Source: Bacillus sp. AFS059628 (GTDB taxonomy: Bacteria; Bacillota; Bacilli; Bacillales; Bacillaceae_G). From it: a stretch of 64,000 nucleotides of DNA. The position numbers were made by a program, and so were the translations under genes. The stretch covers positions 16,316 to 80,315 of the forward strand of contig NZ_NVEC01000096.1 in NCBI RefSeq assembly GCF_002571225.1. Direction: 5' to 3'. The notes under the pieces are model-generated. The model made no database searches. It was not told where the DNA came from and saw only the letters and a list, made by a program, of their open reading frames with translations. How positions within the stretch are numbered: the first letter of the stretch is position 1; the number at the start of each line of letters is the position of its first letter. Shown here one piece after another: positions 17,814-34,297 of the stretch.

Positions 17814-18416
17814 ATGGCTCGTTATACAGGTCCAGCTTGGAAACTGTCTCGTCGTCTTGGAATCTCTCTAAGCGGCACAGGAAAAGAATTAGAAAAACGC
17901 CCTTACGCACCAGGTCCTCACGGTCCTAACCAACGTAAGAAACTTTCAGAATACGGTTTACAATTACAAGAGAAACAAAAACTTCGTCACATGTACGGCA
18001 TGACTGAGCGTCAATTCCGTCGCACATTTGACCAAGCAGGTAAAATGCCTGGTAAGCACGGCGAAAACTTCATGATCCTTCTTGAAGCTCGTCTTGACAA
18101 CTTAGTTTACCGTATGGGCTTAGCTCGCACTCGTCGTGCAGCTCGCCAATTAGTAAACCACGGTCACATCATGGTTGATGGCGCTCGCGTAGATATCCCA
18201 TCTTACCGTGTAAAACCTGGTCAAACTATCAGCGTTCGCGAAAAATCTAACAACCTTGTTGTTGTTAAAGAAGCGATCGAAGTTAACAACTTCGTACCAG
18301 AATACTTAACTTTCGATGCTGACAAATTAGAAGCTACTTACACTCGTCACGCTGAGCGTTCTGAGTTACCAGCTGAAATCAACGAAGCATTAATCGTAGA
18401 GTTCTACTCTCGTTAA
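17814..18416 (+). CDS. rpsD: 30S ribosomal protein S4
   Basis: A 200-residue primary 16S rRNA-binding protein. It begins MARYTGPAWKLSRRLGISL and contains the S4 RNA-binding domain (RLDNLVYRMGLARTRRAARQLVNHGHIMVDG, about residues 92-122). The ribosome-binding site is AAAGGAGGAG. The last codons, EFYSR and the stop, are inside the 19-bp attachment repeat, so insertion of the element at 18399 kept the protein intact but cut the gene off from its own terminator, which now lies at 34301-34330. Confidence 0.98.
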   Translation: MARYTGPAWKLSRRLGISLSGTGKELEKRPYAPGPHGPNQRKKLSEYGLQLQEKQKLRHMYGMTERQFRRTFDQAGKMPGKHGENFMILLEARLDNLVYRMGLARTRRAARQLVNHGHIMVDGARVDIPSYRVKPGQTISVREKSNNLVVVKEAIEVNNFVPEYLTFDADKLEATYTRHAERSELPAEINEALIVEFYSR

Positions 18417-18417
18417 T
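18399..18417 (+). repeat. attL: left 19-bp direct repeat at the 3' end of rpsD
   Basis: GAGTTCTACTCTCGTTAAT ends rpsD here and recurs exactly at 34279-34297, after the integrase gene. The flanking bases differ on both sides, so the shared core is 19 bp. It marks the left junction of the integrated element. Confidence 0.93.
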
Positions 18418-18443
18418 TCAATCGCTTTGTAGATACTAGTATT

Positions 18444-18488
18444 AAAAACCCTAGAAACGTTATTATAACGCCTTTTCTAGGGTTTTTT
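18444..18488 (+). terminator. Element-borne replacement terminator for rpsD
   Basis: AAAACCCTAGAAA pairs with the TTTCTAGGGTTTT stretch ending at 18486, followed by T's. It lies 27 bases inside the element and would end the rpsD transcript, whose native terminator is now 15.9 kb away. Confidence 0.85.
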
Positions 18489-18531
18489 ACTGTTCTTATG
18501 GTTTGTAAAATAACTTAAATAAAATTAATTA

Positions 18532-18561
18532 GTTGGGGGAGGTTTTTGGGGGGACTTTTGA
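18532..18561 (+). pseudogene. Remnant of an integrase 3' end
   Basis: Bases 18532-18561 read VGGGFWGDF and a stop. The resident integrase ends TAGGTFGGDF and a stop at 34232, encoded by a similar G-rich DNA stretch. The frame is closed by a TAA two codons upstream, so only a tail survives. It suggests that an earlier, related element was inserted at the same site and then decayed. The match is short, so confidence is moderate. Confidence 0.45.
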
Positions 18562-18571
18562 AATAAAAAAA

Positions 18572-18582
18572 GCGTGAGCAAA
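18572..18582 (-). repeat. TTTGCTCACGC motif, copy 1 (inverted)
   Basis: GCGTGAGCAAA is the reverse complement of the 11-base motif found at 31762-31772 and 33027-33037. One copy is near the left att site and one is directly before the integrase gene. This is the layout of integrase arm-type or excisionase sites, though that role is inferred. Confidence 0.5.
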
Positions 18583-18660
18583 TGCTAATTTCCCCACACA
18601 CTCTTACAATTTCAGATATAATGATATTTATTCTAATCAAATTAAAAGGAGTTAATTGTT

Positions 18661-19092
18661 TTGAAAGAAAAATTCACCAAGATCCCTCTTCATGTACAAG
18701 ACTTTCAAAAATTAAAAATGTTATTAGACGAATTGGTACAAGATGAAATAATGTTCATGGAAGGGGTTTCTAAGTATGCTTTAAATATTTCTTCTAAAGA
18801 ACATAAGGTCACCATTAACCTTAGAAGTGAATTTTCCACCAATTCATACTTGGCGATCACCGCTATAAGTATTACCCCAAGCAATCAAGGTAAGGGGAGT
18901 ATTATTATTGAATGGTTTAAGACATTCGCTAAAGAACAAGGCTTTGAACGATTAGTATTACAGCAAGTCGTAACTAAAGAAGGTTACCACTTTGCATTAA
19001 AAAATGGATTTTCAAAACATGTTAGTCTGTACGAAGAAATGTTTGGAAAACCAAACACTATTAACGGAGATTATGAACTACATTTAACGTAA
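18661..19092 (+). CDS. GNAT-fold acetyltransferase-like protein
   Basis: A 143-residue protein. Residues about 70-115 look like the GNAT core: a beta strand (YLAITAISITP), the acetyl-CoA loop in the form NQGKGSIIIEWFKTFAKEQGF, and the late motif EGYHFALKNGFSK. The N-terminal half matches nothing I recognise. Translation starts at a TTG, 9 bases after AAAAGGAG. It is the first gene inside the left att site and has its own terminator. It may be a cargo enzyme or the antitoxin/toxin type of GNAT; no partner is adjacent. Confidence 0.6.
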   Translation: MKEKFTKIPLHVQDFQKLKMLLDELVQDEIMFMEGVSKYALNISSKEHKVTINLRSEFSTNSYLAITAISITPSNQGKGSIIIEWFKTFAKEQGFERLVLQQVVTKEGYHFALKNGFSKHVSLYEEMFGKPNTINGDYELHLT

Positions 19093-32349: not shown

Positions 32350-32426
32350 AGTATACAATCTACCGTTTGGTATCGTCAACCATTATTTTAAATTTGTTTG
32401 ACATAACTACCACCCTAAAGTAAAAT
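32350..32426. promoter_or_regulatory. Divergent switch region: cro and repressor promoters with a dyad
   Basis: Leftward promoter on the minus strand: TTGACG (32374-32379), 18 bases, TATACT (32350-32355). Rightward promoter: TTGACA (32398-32403), 17 bases, TAAAAT (32421-32426). The dyad TACCGTTTGGTA (32361-32372) lies in the spacer of the leftward promoter and is the best operator candidate for the repressor. Confidence 0.8.
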
Positions 32427-32448
32427 TTAGACAAATAAATAAAAGAAG

Positions 32449-32997
32449 GTGATTAAAATAGAATTAGGTGAATATATACGAAAAGTTCGCACGGACAAAA
32501 AACTTTCATTAAGAAAAGCAGCAGAATTGACTGGTATATCGCATCCTTATTTATCTCAATTAGAGACAGGTAGTCATAAAAAACCATCAGCAGAAATATT
32601 AGAGAAAATAGCTGAAGGGTTAGATATTCATTTTAATTATCTCTCCTATCTAGCTGGTTATATTAACTATCCACTTATCGAAAATGATGAAACTTTAACA
32701 AATGAAGAAAAAGAAGAGCAGATAAAAGAAGCTATTCATAAAATACCTGGTAATATTTTTAATGATCCTTTTAATTCTTCAAAGACAATACCTATAACTT
32801 CATTTGTACCCAAATTCATAAATATTATAGATGAAGAAGACGGAGTAGAAAGTCAGATTCCTACTACAAAAGAACATCTATTTGATTTACATTATCTACT
32901 TCAGATGGATGTAGACATTTGCTATGACAAAAAAACCTTAACTAATGAGAATAAAAAAGATATCTTAAAGTTTATTGAAAACTTCATAATTAAATAA
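32449..32997 (+). CDS. CI/Stl-like repressor (XRE HTH, 182 aa)
   Basis: Residues about 9-62 form an XRE helix-turn-helix (KKLSLRKAAELTGISHPYLS, then QLETGSHKKPSAEILEKIAE). The C-terminal part is acidic and has no Ser-Lys LexA-type protease motif, so SOS cleavage is unlikely and derepression by a helper protein, as for SaPI Stl, is more plausible. The only standard start is GTG at 32449, but it lies within the strong Shine-Dalgarno AAGAAGGTGAT. Starting at ATA 32458, or leaderless-like initiation, are alternatives. Confidence 0.8.
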   Translation: MIKIELGEYIRKVRTDKKLSLRKAAELTGISHPYLSQLETGSHKKPSAEILEKIAEGLDIHFNYLSYLAGYINYPLIENDETLTNEEKEEQIKEAIHKIPGNIFNDPFNSSKTIPITSFVPKFINIIDEEDGVESQIPTTKEHLFDLHYLLQMDVDICYDKKTLTNENKKDILKFIENFIIK

Positions 32998-33026
32998 TTA
33001 TAAGTATCCTTTCCCTTTTAATAGCG

Positions 33027-33037
33027 TTTGCTCACGC
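33027..33037 (+). repeat. TTTGCTCACGC motif, copy 3
   Basis: It lies in CGTTTGCTCACGC at 33025-33037, 20 bases before the integrase start codon and just upstream of its ribosome-binding site. See copies at 18572 and 31762. Confidence 0.5.
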
Positions 33038-33056
33038 ACGAAAGGGTAGATAAATA

Positions 33057-34232
33057 ATGAAACTATATAAAACAAAGAAAGATCCTGAATTATACTATTA
33101 TTTCAATACCAAAGGTGTAAAACTATGGTGTTTTAGACATAGATACTATGATTCATTAGGAAAAAGGCGAGAAAAATACAAACAGGGTTATAAATCTGAA
33201 AATGAAGCTTACCGAGGGTTACTTGAAGTTAAGACAAGTATCTTAAATGGTGAAGTTAAACAGGTTAAAAACTCCAATTTAACTATTTCAGAATGGTTAG
33301 ATATATGGTATGAAACTCACAAAAATGAATGGAAGATCTCTTCATGTTCACAACGAGAAAATGCTATTAAATATCAAATGAAACCACTGCTCGGTAAATA
33401 TAAATTATCTGAGTTAGATAAATCAACTTACAAGCGTGTTTATATCAATGAACTATTAAAGAGATATAAACCTAGTACCGTTCAACTTTTTCACAGACTT
33501 TTTAAAATTGCAATCAATGCAGCTGTGGATGATGAACTTATTCCTCGTAATAGATTTAATAAAATTACAATACCAAATGAAGAAAAGACAGTAGAAAACT
33601 TCTTCACAGCTGAAGAGTTAAATGAATTCATAGCAGCTGCTAAAAAGCACGAAAACATCACAAACTATAGCATAATTTTGTTACTTGCTTTCACTGGATT
33701 AAGAAAAGGTGAGGCACTCGGGTTACAGTGGAAAAACATTAATTTCGAAGAAAAAACTCTAACTGTAGAACGCACTCGTGATAACAAGGGAACACGCACA
33801 CCCAAAACTAAAAATAGCTTCCGTACGATTTTAATTGATGATACTCTCATTAATCAATTGAAGGCCTATAGAACATGGTGTAAAAAAACAAAGCTCTCTT
33901 TCGGCCTGCACTTAAACGACGATGATTTTATTTTCATATCTTATCAATCTGGAACACCTATAACAGATAACCCTTTAATGTATAGTTTTCAACGCATATT
34001 AAAACATACAACTTTGAAAAAAATCACTCCACATGGTTTAAGACACACACATGCGACATTATTAATTAGCCAGCGGATACCAGTAAAAGTTATTGCTGAT
34101 CGTTTAGGTAATACACCGCAGATGATTTTTGATATATATGGTCATTCATTTAAGGAATTAGAAGAAGAGTCAGTCGCTGCATTTAGTACAAGTTTACTTA
34201 CAGCTGGGGGAACTTTTGGGGGGGATTTTTAA
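33057..34232 (+). CDS. int: Site-specific tyrosine recombinase (integrase, Tn916/ICEBs1-like)
   Basis: A 391-residue integrase: N-terminal AP2/arm-binding region (residues 1-60, YYYFNTKGVKLWCFRHRYYD), SAM-like core-binding domain (about 70-165) and catalytic domain with Arg in TGLRKGEALG (near 216), HGLRHTHA (near 327) and the nucleophile in DIYGHSF (near 361). The stop codon is 46 bases before attR, the standard place. It catalyses integration into the rpsD tail. AAAGGG precedes the ATG. Confidence 0.95.
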   Translation: MKLYKTKKDPELYYYFNTKGVKLWCFRHRYYDSLGKRREKYKQGYKSENEAYRGLLEVKTSILNGEVKQVKNSNLTISEWLDIWYETHKNEWKISSCSQRENAIKYQMKPLLGKYKLSELDKSTYKRVYINELLKRYKPSTVQLFHRLFKIAINAAVDDELIPRNRFNKITIPNEEKTVENFFTAEELNEFIAAAKKHENITNYSIILLLAFTGLRKGEALGLQWKNINFEEKTLTVERTRDNKGTRTPKTKNSFRTILIDDTLINQLKAYRTWCKKTKLSFGLHLNDDDFIFISYQSGTPITDNPLMYSFQRILKHTTLKKITPHGLRHTHATLLISQRIPVKVIADRLGNTPQMIFDIYGHSFKELEEESVAAFSTSLLTAGGTFGGDF

Positions 34233-34278
34233 AATCATACCTCGAAACCTTGATAATATAAGGGGTTTTAATACTAAG

Positions 34279-34297
34279 GAGTTCTACTCTCGTTAAT
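34279..34297 (+). repeat. attR: right 19-bp direct repeat
   Basis: GAGTTCTACTCTCGTTAAT, identical to 18399-18417. To its right is the native rpsD terminator, so this repeat marks the element's right junction. Confidence 0.93.

What the first reader, a model, noticed from the sequence alone, without database searches (positions are those of the whole stretch)
18399..34297. Phage satellite (PICI/SaPI-like) integrated in the tail of rpsD, with cargo at the distal end
Seen: 19-bp direct repeats at rpsD and 46 bases past an integrase gene; divergent repressor/Cro with clear promoters; primase-helicase; iteron block; ArpU/RinA-like regulator; terminase small subunit; no structural, large terminase or lysis genes in 15.9 kb. 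Known: Gram-positive PICIs have this order, steal helper capsids, and often carry immune genes between terS and att. Inference: this is a B. cereus-group satellite that uses rpsD as its site. The repressor lacks an SOS-cleavage domain, which fits induction by a helper protein.
Basis: partly seen in the sequence, partly recalled or inferred. Interest (0 to 1): 0.85.

Follow-up and report, generated by a model that had tools for sequence, protein, structure and literature searches.

The report
Phage satellite parked in rpsD
A 15.9-kb stretch at the end of a ribosomal-protein gene is very probably a parasite of phages (a satellite) that copies itself, borrows a helper phage's particle, and carries what look like genes that protect the bacterium against other phages; its closest relatives use the same docking and control genes but bring their own capsid genes instead.

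Summary
Exact 19-bp repeats bound 18399-34297. Inside are a tyrosine integrase, a divergent repressor/Cro pair, a SaPI-type primase-helicase, an 11-copy iteron array, an ArpU-like regulator and a small terminase. No capsid, tail or lysis family and no separate large-terminase gene was found.

The PICI-like reading is supported. The primase-helicase matches a solved 'Pathogenicity island protein' (E 3e-83) and SaPIpT1028, though a relative also sits in a phage-like contig. In phages this TerS family precedes TerL, which is absent here.

New: (1) The element is a mosaic. A relative at the same site (94% DNA identity over the int-repressor end) carries a head-and-packaging module instead, like capsid-forming PICIs; another shares the TerS module (93%) but has a different integrase. 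So it is not a simple prophage deletion. (2) The cargo includes a kinase overlapping a RuvC-like gene. The pair lies in all 14 phage records where the RuvC-like gene was found, most of them Stx-phage relatives; 933W Stk excludes HK97. (3) Against strict PICI membership: prophages with 73-75% identical integrases use the same att in other species.

Host species, helper, excision and transfer remain untested.

The parts
17814..18416 (+). rpsD (host), left boundary; stop codon lies in attL
   Evidence: ORF; 19-mer overlaps its stop
18399..18417 (+). attL, 19-bp direct repeat
18445..18488 (+). terminator-like hairpin at the element's left end, probably replacing the rpsD terminator displaced beyond attR
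   Evidence: folds at -22.4 kcal/mol, 0 of 200 shuffles as stable (position); similar hairpins at the left ends of L014 and the Priestia element; the consensus scan did not list it
18661..19092 (+). GNAT-like acetyltransferase (weak evidence), conserved distal gene
   Evidence: 82% and 76% identical to genes near the ends of L014 and L022; best PDB hit a GNAT enzyme, E 0.04 only; Pfam none
19735..20646 (+). 303-aa cargo protein, unknown
   Evidence: phrog_7195 E 5e-9, unknown function
20905..21447 (-). 180-aa cargo protein, unknown
   Evidence: phrog_18591 E 2e-32, unknown function
21780..22865 (-). serine/threonine kinase, relative of Stk of Stx-type phages
   Evidence: Pkinase E 6e-37; phrog_2361 E 5e-73; 43% to SPbetaL6/L7 and to stk of Stx-type phages
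22862..23350 (-). RuvC-like partner of the kinase, ORFs overlap by 4 bases; Arg where RuvC has its first catalytic Asp (recalled)
   Evidence: phrog_3875 E 6e-26; alignment. The RuvC label rests on PHROGs and record annotation: no Pfam match, no meaningful PDB match
20716..20800 (.). terminator-like repeat, one of two imperfect copies flanking the 180-aa/kinase/RuvC-like block
23609..23695 (.). second copy of that repeat
23900..24772 (+). sce7726-family protein
   Evidence: NCBIfam NF033832, 130 bits against cut-off 70; PADLOC cll E 1e-20
24748..25788 (-). Beta-protein family, convergent neighbour of the sce7726 gene
   Evidence: PF14350 E 2e-24; weak PADLOC PD-Lambda-2_C E 5e-4; NCBIfam none
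26171..26662 (-). 163-aa protein after TerS, unknown
   Evidence: 88% to L022 copy; no family, no phage record at E 0.1
26662..27144 (-). 160-aa protein after TerS, unknown; candidate capsid or packaging modifier (inference from position only)
   Evidence: 88% to L022 copy, the only relative found in IMG/VR; no family
27174..27623 (-). small terminase TerS
   Evidence: phrog_5110, Terminase_5; phage homologues precede TerL
28043..28432 (-). late-regulator-like protein (ArpU/sigma region 4 type)
   Evidence: phrog_36 E 6e-18
28444..28671 (-). 75-aa Cys/His-rich protein shared by satellites with either packaging type
   Evidence: 93-96% in L022 and L014; no phage record at E 0.01
28672..29055 (.). 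iteron array, probable replication origin
29055..31493 (-). primase-helicase / replication initiator of SaPI type
31794..32114 (-). Xis-like protein (inferred)
   Evidence: phrog_9848 shared with L003 protein that matches excisionase families weakly; accompanies most of this integrase family. No Pfam match for it or for two homologues
32047..32316 (-). Cro-like HTH protein
   Evidence: HTH_3 E 1e-4, just under the Pfam cut-off
32449..32997 (+). repressor, N-terminal HTH, no peptidase domain found
33057..34232 (+). tyrosine integrase
   Evidence: PF00589 E 6e-26 with SAM-like and Arm-binding domains
34279..34297 (+). attR, 19-bp direct repeat
34301..34330 (+). hairpin, probably the original rpsD terminator, now beyond attR
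   Evidence: folds at -20.2 kcal/mol, 0 of 200 shuffles as stable (position); not listed by the scan

Best explanation
It is an integrated phage satellite that works like a Gram-positive PICI/SaPI. Shown by sequence: it sits between 19-bp att copies at the rpsD stop, leaves the rpsD reading frame whole and brings a terminator-like hairpin of its own; it has an integrase, a repressor in which no cleavage domain was found, a SaPI-type primase-helicase with its own iterons, and TerS without a TerL or capsid gene. Inferred: in the quiet state the repressor holds the leftward operon off. A helper phage protein lifts repression, integrase with the Xis-like protein excises the element, the primase-helicase replicates it from the iterons, and the satellite TerS pairs with the helper's large terminase to fill helper-made heads, perhaps altered by the 160- and 163-aa proteins. 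The distal cargo (kinase with RuvC-like partner, sce7726/Beta pair) most likely protects the lysogen against competing phages, as Stk of phage 933W does against HK97. The element is a mosaic: the att/integration/control block is shared with head-module satellites at the same att, the TerS block with a satellite that has another integrase, and the replication block with head-module satellites at groEL.
For: att copies, 0 of 100 shuffles. Same att and chassis in L014 with both 19-mers, integrase 99%, repressor 96%, and in L015/L065 with integrase 75%. Empty sites with one exact 19-mer at rpsD, tyrS next to it and no integrase in 4 of 8 tyrS loci examined (L005, L007, L009, L010); in 3 of 8 no rpsD was in the stretch, 1 of 8 is occupied. 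Primase-helicase: PDB 8tch 'Pathogenicity island protein' E 3e-83; best phage record SaPIpT1028, 34% over 63% of the protein, 263 bits against 132 for the next. Iterons 3' of the primase in 10 of 10 elements tested, window included; weakest L014, reached by 1 of 500 Markov sequences. TerS homologues precede a 550-559-aa ORF in 9 of 9 phage-like loci listed; 5 of these 9 ORFs were scanned and all 5 are TerL. No head-module remnant. Genes with close relatives have matching lengths. Kinase/RuvC-like pair; Stk exclusion of HK97: one passage each in PMC3681748 and PMC6356687.
Against: No excision, induction or transfer data. No helper identified: the closest TerS in phage records is 36-44% (3 records) and in viral contigs, apart from L022, at best 54% over 61 residues. 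The primase family is not confined to satellites: 67% identical in L002, a 38-kb contig with TerS- and TerL-like genes that looks like a phage, and 24-34% in phage records. Prophages use the same att in related species. The 160- and 163-aa proteins match nothing known. L014, L015/L065 and L022 are virus-collection contigs whose ends are not all in view.
Confidence: 0.85

Rival explanations
1. A decayed prophage that lost its head, tail and lysis genes and kept integration, control, replication and terS by chance.
For: Integrases 73-75% identical sit in prophages at the same att in other species: G167, G226, G292. The Xis-like protein is shared with several prophage-like loci. A 67% identical primase and a 51% identical ArpU-like protein (over 57 residues) occur in the phage-like contig L002.
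Against: The genes with close relatives have matching lengths. The TerS module recurs at 93% DNA identity in another satellite with a different integrase. The closest solved relative and the closest phage-record relative of the primase-helicase are SaPI proteins. Relatives at 94% DNA identity over the int end carry no recognised tail gene. No structural remnant.
Confidence: 0.07
2. A capsid-forming PICI that lost its capsid genes and is now non-mobile, kept for its cargo.
For: Chassis and primase are shared with head-module elements.
Against: The packaging segment is a different TerS operon shared with L022, and there is no head-module remnant: replacement, not loss.
Confidence: 0.06
3. The kinase/RuvC-like pair and the other cargo serve the island itself (sensing or blocking its helper, or maintaining the island) rather than defending the host against other phages.
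For: PICIs encode helper interference (PMC6092414, passages). In Stx phage P27 the pair lies downstream of the repressor on the same strand.
Against: The pair also occurs on plasmids, and 933W Stk acts on a heterologous phage, HK97.
Confidence: 0.25

Closest known systems
SaPIpT1028 (Staphylococcus phage PT1028, AY954948)
   Same: 15.6 kb; integrase and repressor transcribed one way, HTH gene (by eye), primase-helicase with an iteron array and further genes the other way; primase-helicase 34% identical over 63% of the protein; repressor similarity over 61 residues.
   Different: Its other proteins, including ORF007 (the capsid redirector Rcm of PMC12409344, abstract and passages seen), show no BLAST match at E 0.05 to the TerS, 160- or 163-aa proteins here, apart from one ORF015/160-aa hit at E 0.007 over 57 residues, which I treat as chance (21 of its 22 ORFs compared); different cargo.
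Capsid-forming PICIs (cf-PICIs)
   Same: L014 and L015/L065 at the same att share integrase, repressor and Xis-like protein; L001, L003, L004 next to groEL share the primase at 65-71% and carry the same head module.
   Different: No portal, protease, major capsid, TerL, HNH or connector gene here; TerS of another family.
L022 satellite (IMG/VR 2537562006_000001)
   Same: 75-aa protein, ArpU-like gene, TerS, 160-aa and 162-aa proteins over 2.5 kb at 93% DNA identity; GNAT-like gene towards the far end.
   Different: Different integrase, repressor, primase and iteron.
Stk exclusion locus of Stx phages (933W type)
   Same: RuvC-like gene followed by or overlapping a kinase 43% identical to the one here.
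   Different: There it lies downstream of the phage repressor; here it is distal cargo of a satellite. The 933W record itself was not examined.

Membership tests
PICI, Gram-positive (criteria of PMC6092414, passages read) | Conserved order: int and repressor, then primase/rep, ori and terS in one direction; accessory genes at the 3' end | tested here: met
PICI, Gram-positive | No phage structural or lysis genes | tested here: met
PICI, Gram-positive | Size typically around 15 kb | tested here: met
   15,899 bases between the outer att ends
PICI, Gram-positive | att site never used by prophages, tested in the wider order | tested here: not met
   Prophages beside tyrS with the exact 19-mer in 3 of the 9 genomes (of 397 searched) with a close integrase: G167, G226, G292; the rpsD end itself was seen at the left 18-mer of G167
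PICI, Gram-positive | att site never used by prophages, within the host's own species | not testable with these tools
   No genome held for the window; no tyrS above 76% DNA identity among 150 genomes
PICI, Gram-positive | Interference with a helper phage; helper-dependent induction and packaging | not testable with these tools
   needs experiments
PICI, Gram-positive | Genes unique to or orthologous among PICIs | tested here: inconclusive
   SaPI primase-helicase relatives and a module shared with another satellite, but the primase also occurs in phage-like L002
cf-PICI (definition as given in PMC10690885, passages) | Own capsid, protease, portal, connectors, TerL, TerS and HNH | tested here: not met
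   absent here, present in L014
933W-type Stk exclusion system | Kinase with catalytic motifs next to the RuvC-like gene (motifs recalled) | tested here: met
   HxDxKxxN and DFG present in all 7 aligned kinases; ORFs overlap here
933W-type Stk exclusion system | Excludes an infecting phage | not testable with these tools
   only the published 933W/HK97 case, seen as passages

The most novel reading that the evidence does not exclude
The rpsD satellites are one lineage that switches its way of travelling: the same docking and control genes carry either a complete head factory (L014, L065) or only a TerS operon that borrows heads (this element). The exchange happened near the shared 75-aa gene beside the replication origin, so 'capsid-forming' and 'capsid-stealing' would be interchangeable packaging cassettes rather than separate families. 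In addition, the RuvC-like/kinase pair would be a two-gene defence unit spread across Firmicutes and Proteobacteria, in which a RuvC-like protein without its first catalytic aspartate senses infection and switches on the kinase.
Probability: 0.45. Interest if true: 0.7.

Novelty: new member of a known kind. Interest (0 to 1): 0.5.

Why it matters
From general knowledge, PICIs are best described in cocci and in Gram-negative bacteria. This element and its relatives would extend them to a Bacillus-like host and show, at one docking site, capsid-borrowing and head-carrying satellites with nearly the same integration and control genes. That makes the origin of the two strategies testable by swapping histories rather than by distant comparison. 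The Stk-like pair on a satellite links an old phage-exclusion observation to mobile defence cargo.

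Tried and rejected
DNA search of the whole element against phages and plasmids (megablast): no match. Structure prediction of the 160- and 163-aa proteins: tool switched off, so a capsid-modifier role for them stays a guess from position. A link between the 303-aa cargo protein and a 321-aa Priestia protein looked likely by eye but is not supported (E 0.13) and was dropped. Papers on PICIs of B. cereus or at rpsD: the listings (titles and abstract starts) showed none on this subject; this covers only the open library. 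A published RuvC-like/Stk abortive-infection pair: no paper held all four terms. The terminator scan missed both end hairpins; folding supports them.

Of 20 TerS loci I listed 9 for their neighbours and read L022. Of 42 phage records with a kinase match 15 were shown; the other 28 beyond the 14 shared records have no RuvC-like match at E 1e-3, as expected for a common kinase fold. The 14 shared records include RefSeq duplicates of two phages. Of 5 plasmids with the RuvC-like gene I opened 4; in 4 viral contigs the kinase follows in 3 and the fourth ends at the gene. Of the 9 genomes with a close integrase, 3 are prophages beside tyrS; G001 has a satellite with 4 mismatches in its right att; G366 has a 10.9-kb element with an amidase-like gene (by eye); G344 and G396 are cut by contig ends (G396 has a 47% DUF927 primase); G142 is prophage-like without tyrS beside it; in G305 nothing else phage-like was recognised in 6 kb.

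Full report
What is there. The 19-bp repeats are exact and occur nowhere else in the window even with three mismatches. The left copy contains the rpsD stop codon, so the rpsD reading frame is whole after integration. Just inside the left end is a terminator-like hairpin (18445-18488, -22.4 kcal/mol, 0 of 200 shuffles as stable); similar hairpins lie at the left ends of L014 and of the Priestia element. A second hairpin, probably the original rpsD terminator, now lies beyond the right copy (34301-34330, -20.2 kcal/mol, 0 of 200). The consensus scan listed neither. The element's genes and their family matches are given under parts.

Satellite rather than phage. The 812-aa protein has DUF927 and PriCT_1 domains. 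Its best solved relative is a 'Pathogenicity island protein' (8tch, E 3e-83), followed by 5dgk, an 'Active helicase' (E 4e-16). In 50,697 phage records the best of 20 matches is SaPIpT1028; the other records match at 24-32% identity with about half the score or less. Against a satellite-only family: L002, a 38-kb contig of which 21 kb were read, has a 67% identical primase, interrupted by another ORF, a 51% identical ArpU-like protein, and TerS- and TerL-like genes, so it looks like a phage. Directly 3' of our primase lies an iteron array. In 10 of 10 related or compared elements the 400 bases after the primase hold one over-represented 7-mer. The 7-mer differs between most elements and is shared by L001 and L003 and by L022 and L065, whose primases are alike; in L014 the signal is weakest (1 of 500 Markov sequences reach it). 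This fits a Rep/ori pair. TerS belongs to phrog_5110. In the nine phage-like loci that I listed the homologous TerS is followed by a 550-559-aa ORF; five of these nine were scanned and all five are TerL. Here TerS is followed by two small proteins that match no family and, for the 163-aa protein, no phage record at E 0.1.

Relatives and mosaic structure. L014 (IMG/VR, 13.8 kb) has both 19-mers 13 kb apart, the end of rpsD on its left, an integrase 99% and a repressor 96% identical to ours, and between them portal, head protease, major capsid protein, HNH, a weakly TerS-like protein, TerL and a connector; no tail gene was recognised. L015/L065, again with the 19-mer beside its integrase, has a 75% identical integrase and the same head module. 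L001, L003 and L004 lie next to groEL, have a primase 65-71% identical to ours and the same head module (L014 proteins as reference). L022 has a different integrase and primase but the same 75-aa/ArpU-like/TerS/160/163 segment. By DNA, window 18399-19106 and 31501-34297 match L014 (91% and 94%), 26015-28694 matches L022 (the main 2.5-kb piece at 93%), 28849-30701 matches L004 (79%), and the cargo 19141-26015 matches none of the nine loci compared, apart from a 47-base piece in L015. No head-module remnant is found in our element. So the packaging block looks exchanged, not lost.

The site in other species. Of eight tyrS loci inspected, four show rpsD with a single exact 19-mer beside tyrS and no integrase, i.e. 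empty sites; one (Priestia, G001) is occupied; in three no rpsD was in the stretch. Of 397 genomes of the order, nine have an integrase at E 1e-110 or better. In three of these (G167, G226, G292) the exact 19-mer and tyrS flank the integrase and the element is a prophage with TerL-like and tape-measure-like genes; G167 and G226 also match the portal weakly and G167 the protease and capsid protein. Profiles confirm the endolysin of G167 and the tape measure of G226. In G167 the two 18-mers are 35.1 kb apart and the left one ends rpsD; the left ends of the other two were not in the stretches read. The published PICI criterion of an att site never used by prophages (PMC6092414, passages) is therefore not met across the order. 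That criterion was checked there per species, and the host's own species could not be tested. I therefore say that it works like a PICI and is a PICI-type satellite, and leave strict membership open on this point.

Control. The repressor matches only HTH families, or regulator families through their HTH part; no peptidase family was found. This fits induction by a helper protein but does not prove it. The 106-aa protein after Cro shares phrog_9848 with the protein in the same place in L003, which in turn matches excisionase families weakly. It accompanies this integrase family in satellites and prophages alike (not found in L055, L056 and L058), so I read it as Xis; Pfam does not recognise it.

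Cargo. The kinase (Pkinase E 6e-37) and the RuvC-like gene (phrog_3875) overlap by four bases. The 14 phage records that hold the RuvC-like gene are the same 14 that hold the best kinase matches, in each case next to it: 12 coliphage records, most of them Stx-phage relatives and two of them RefSeq duplicates, and two SPbeta-like B. subtilis phages. The four of five plasmid records that I opened show the same overlap. In viral contigs the kinase follows in three of four; the fourth ends at the gene. In Stx phage P27 the pair lies downstream of the repressor on the same strand. Two papers, seen as passages, state that Stk of 933W is activated by HK97 infection and involved in exclusion (PMC3681748) and that it blocks HK97 (PMC6356687). 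In the alignment of seven pairs the kinase keeps its catalytic motifs in 7 of 7, while the RuvC-like protein has Arg where RuvC has its first catalytic Asp (recalled) in 6 of 6 with an intact N terminus. That suggests a sensor or partner rather than a nuclease. The RuvC label rests on PHROGs and record annotation; Pfam and PDB searches did not support it. The sce7726/Beta pair resembles parts of catalogued defence systems, the Beta protein only weakly. The defensive role is inference.

What is not shown: excision, induction, helper, packaging, transfer, defence, and the host species.

Noticed in passing
L016/L043 (G001 C1:95380-114787): A 19.4-kb sister satellite in Priestia between rpsD and tyrS carries a TerS-like protein and a 781-aa tail tape-measure-like protein (phrog_58 E 2e-58), with no match to the head-module references; a satellite with its own tape measure would be unusual.
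   Followed up: partly
L014:13181-13552 and L015:2160-2400: Right of attR the DNA in both relatives is alike and not that of the window; in L014 it includes a short ORF like the start of the GNAT-like gene typical of a left end, suggesting tandem or remnant elements at rpsD; in L015 an LXG-like protein gene (label by eye) follows.
   Followed up: partly
window 20716-20800, 23609-23695, 25929-25973: Similar terminator-like repeats lie between the cargo blocks; two copies of about 85 bases bracket the 180-aa/kinase/RuvC-like block and could allow cassette exchange.
   Followed up: partly
window 18661-19092; L014:369-797; L022:18043-18471: A GNAT-like gene is kept towards the distal end of three satellites with different packaging or integration modules; function unknown.
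   Followed up: partly
window 28444-28671: A 75-aa Cys/His-rich protein is 93-96% conserved across satellites with either packaging type, has no Pfam or PHROGs match and no match in phage records at E 0.01.
   Followed up: partly
L002:8919-13896: The primase gene of this phage-like contig is split by a 606-aa ORF that looks like a group II intron reverse transcriptase (label by eye).
   Followed up: partly
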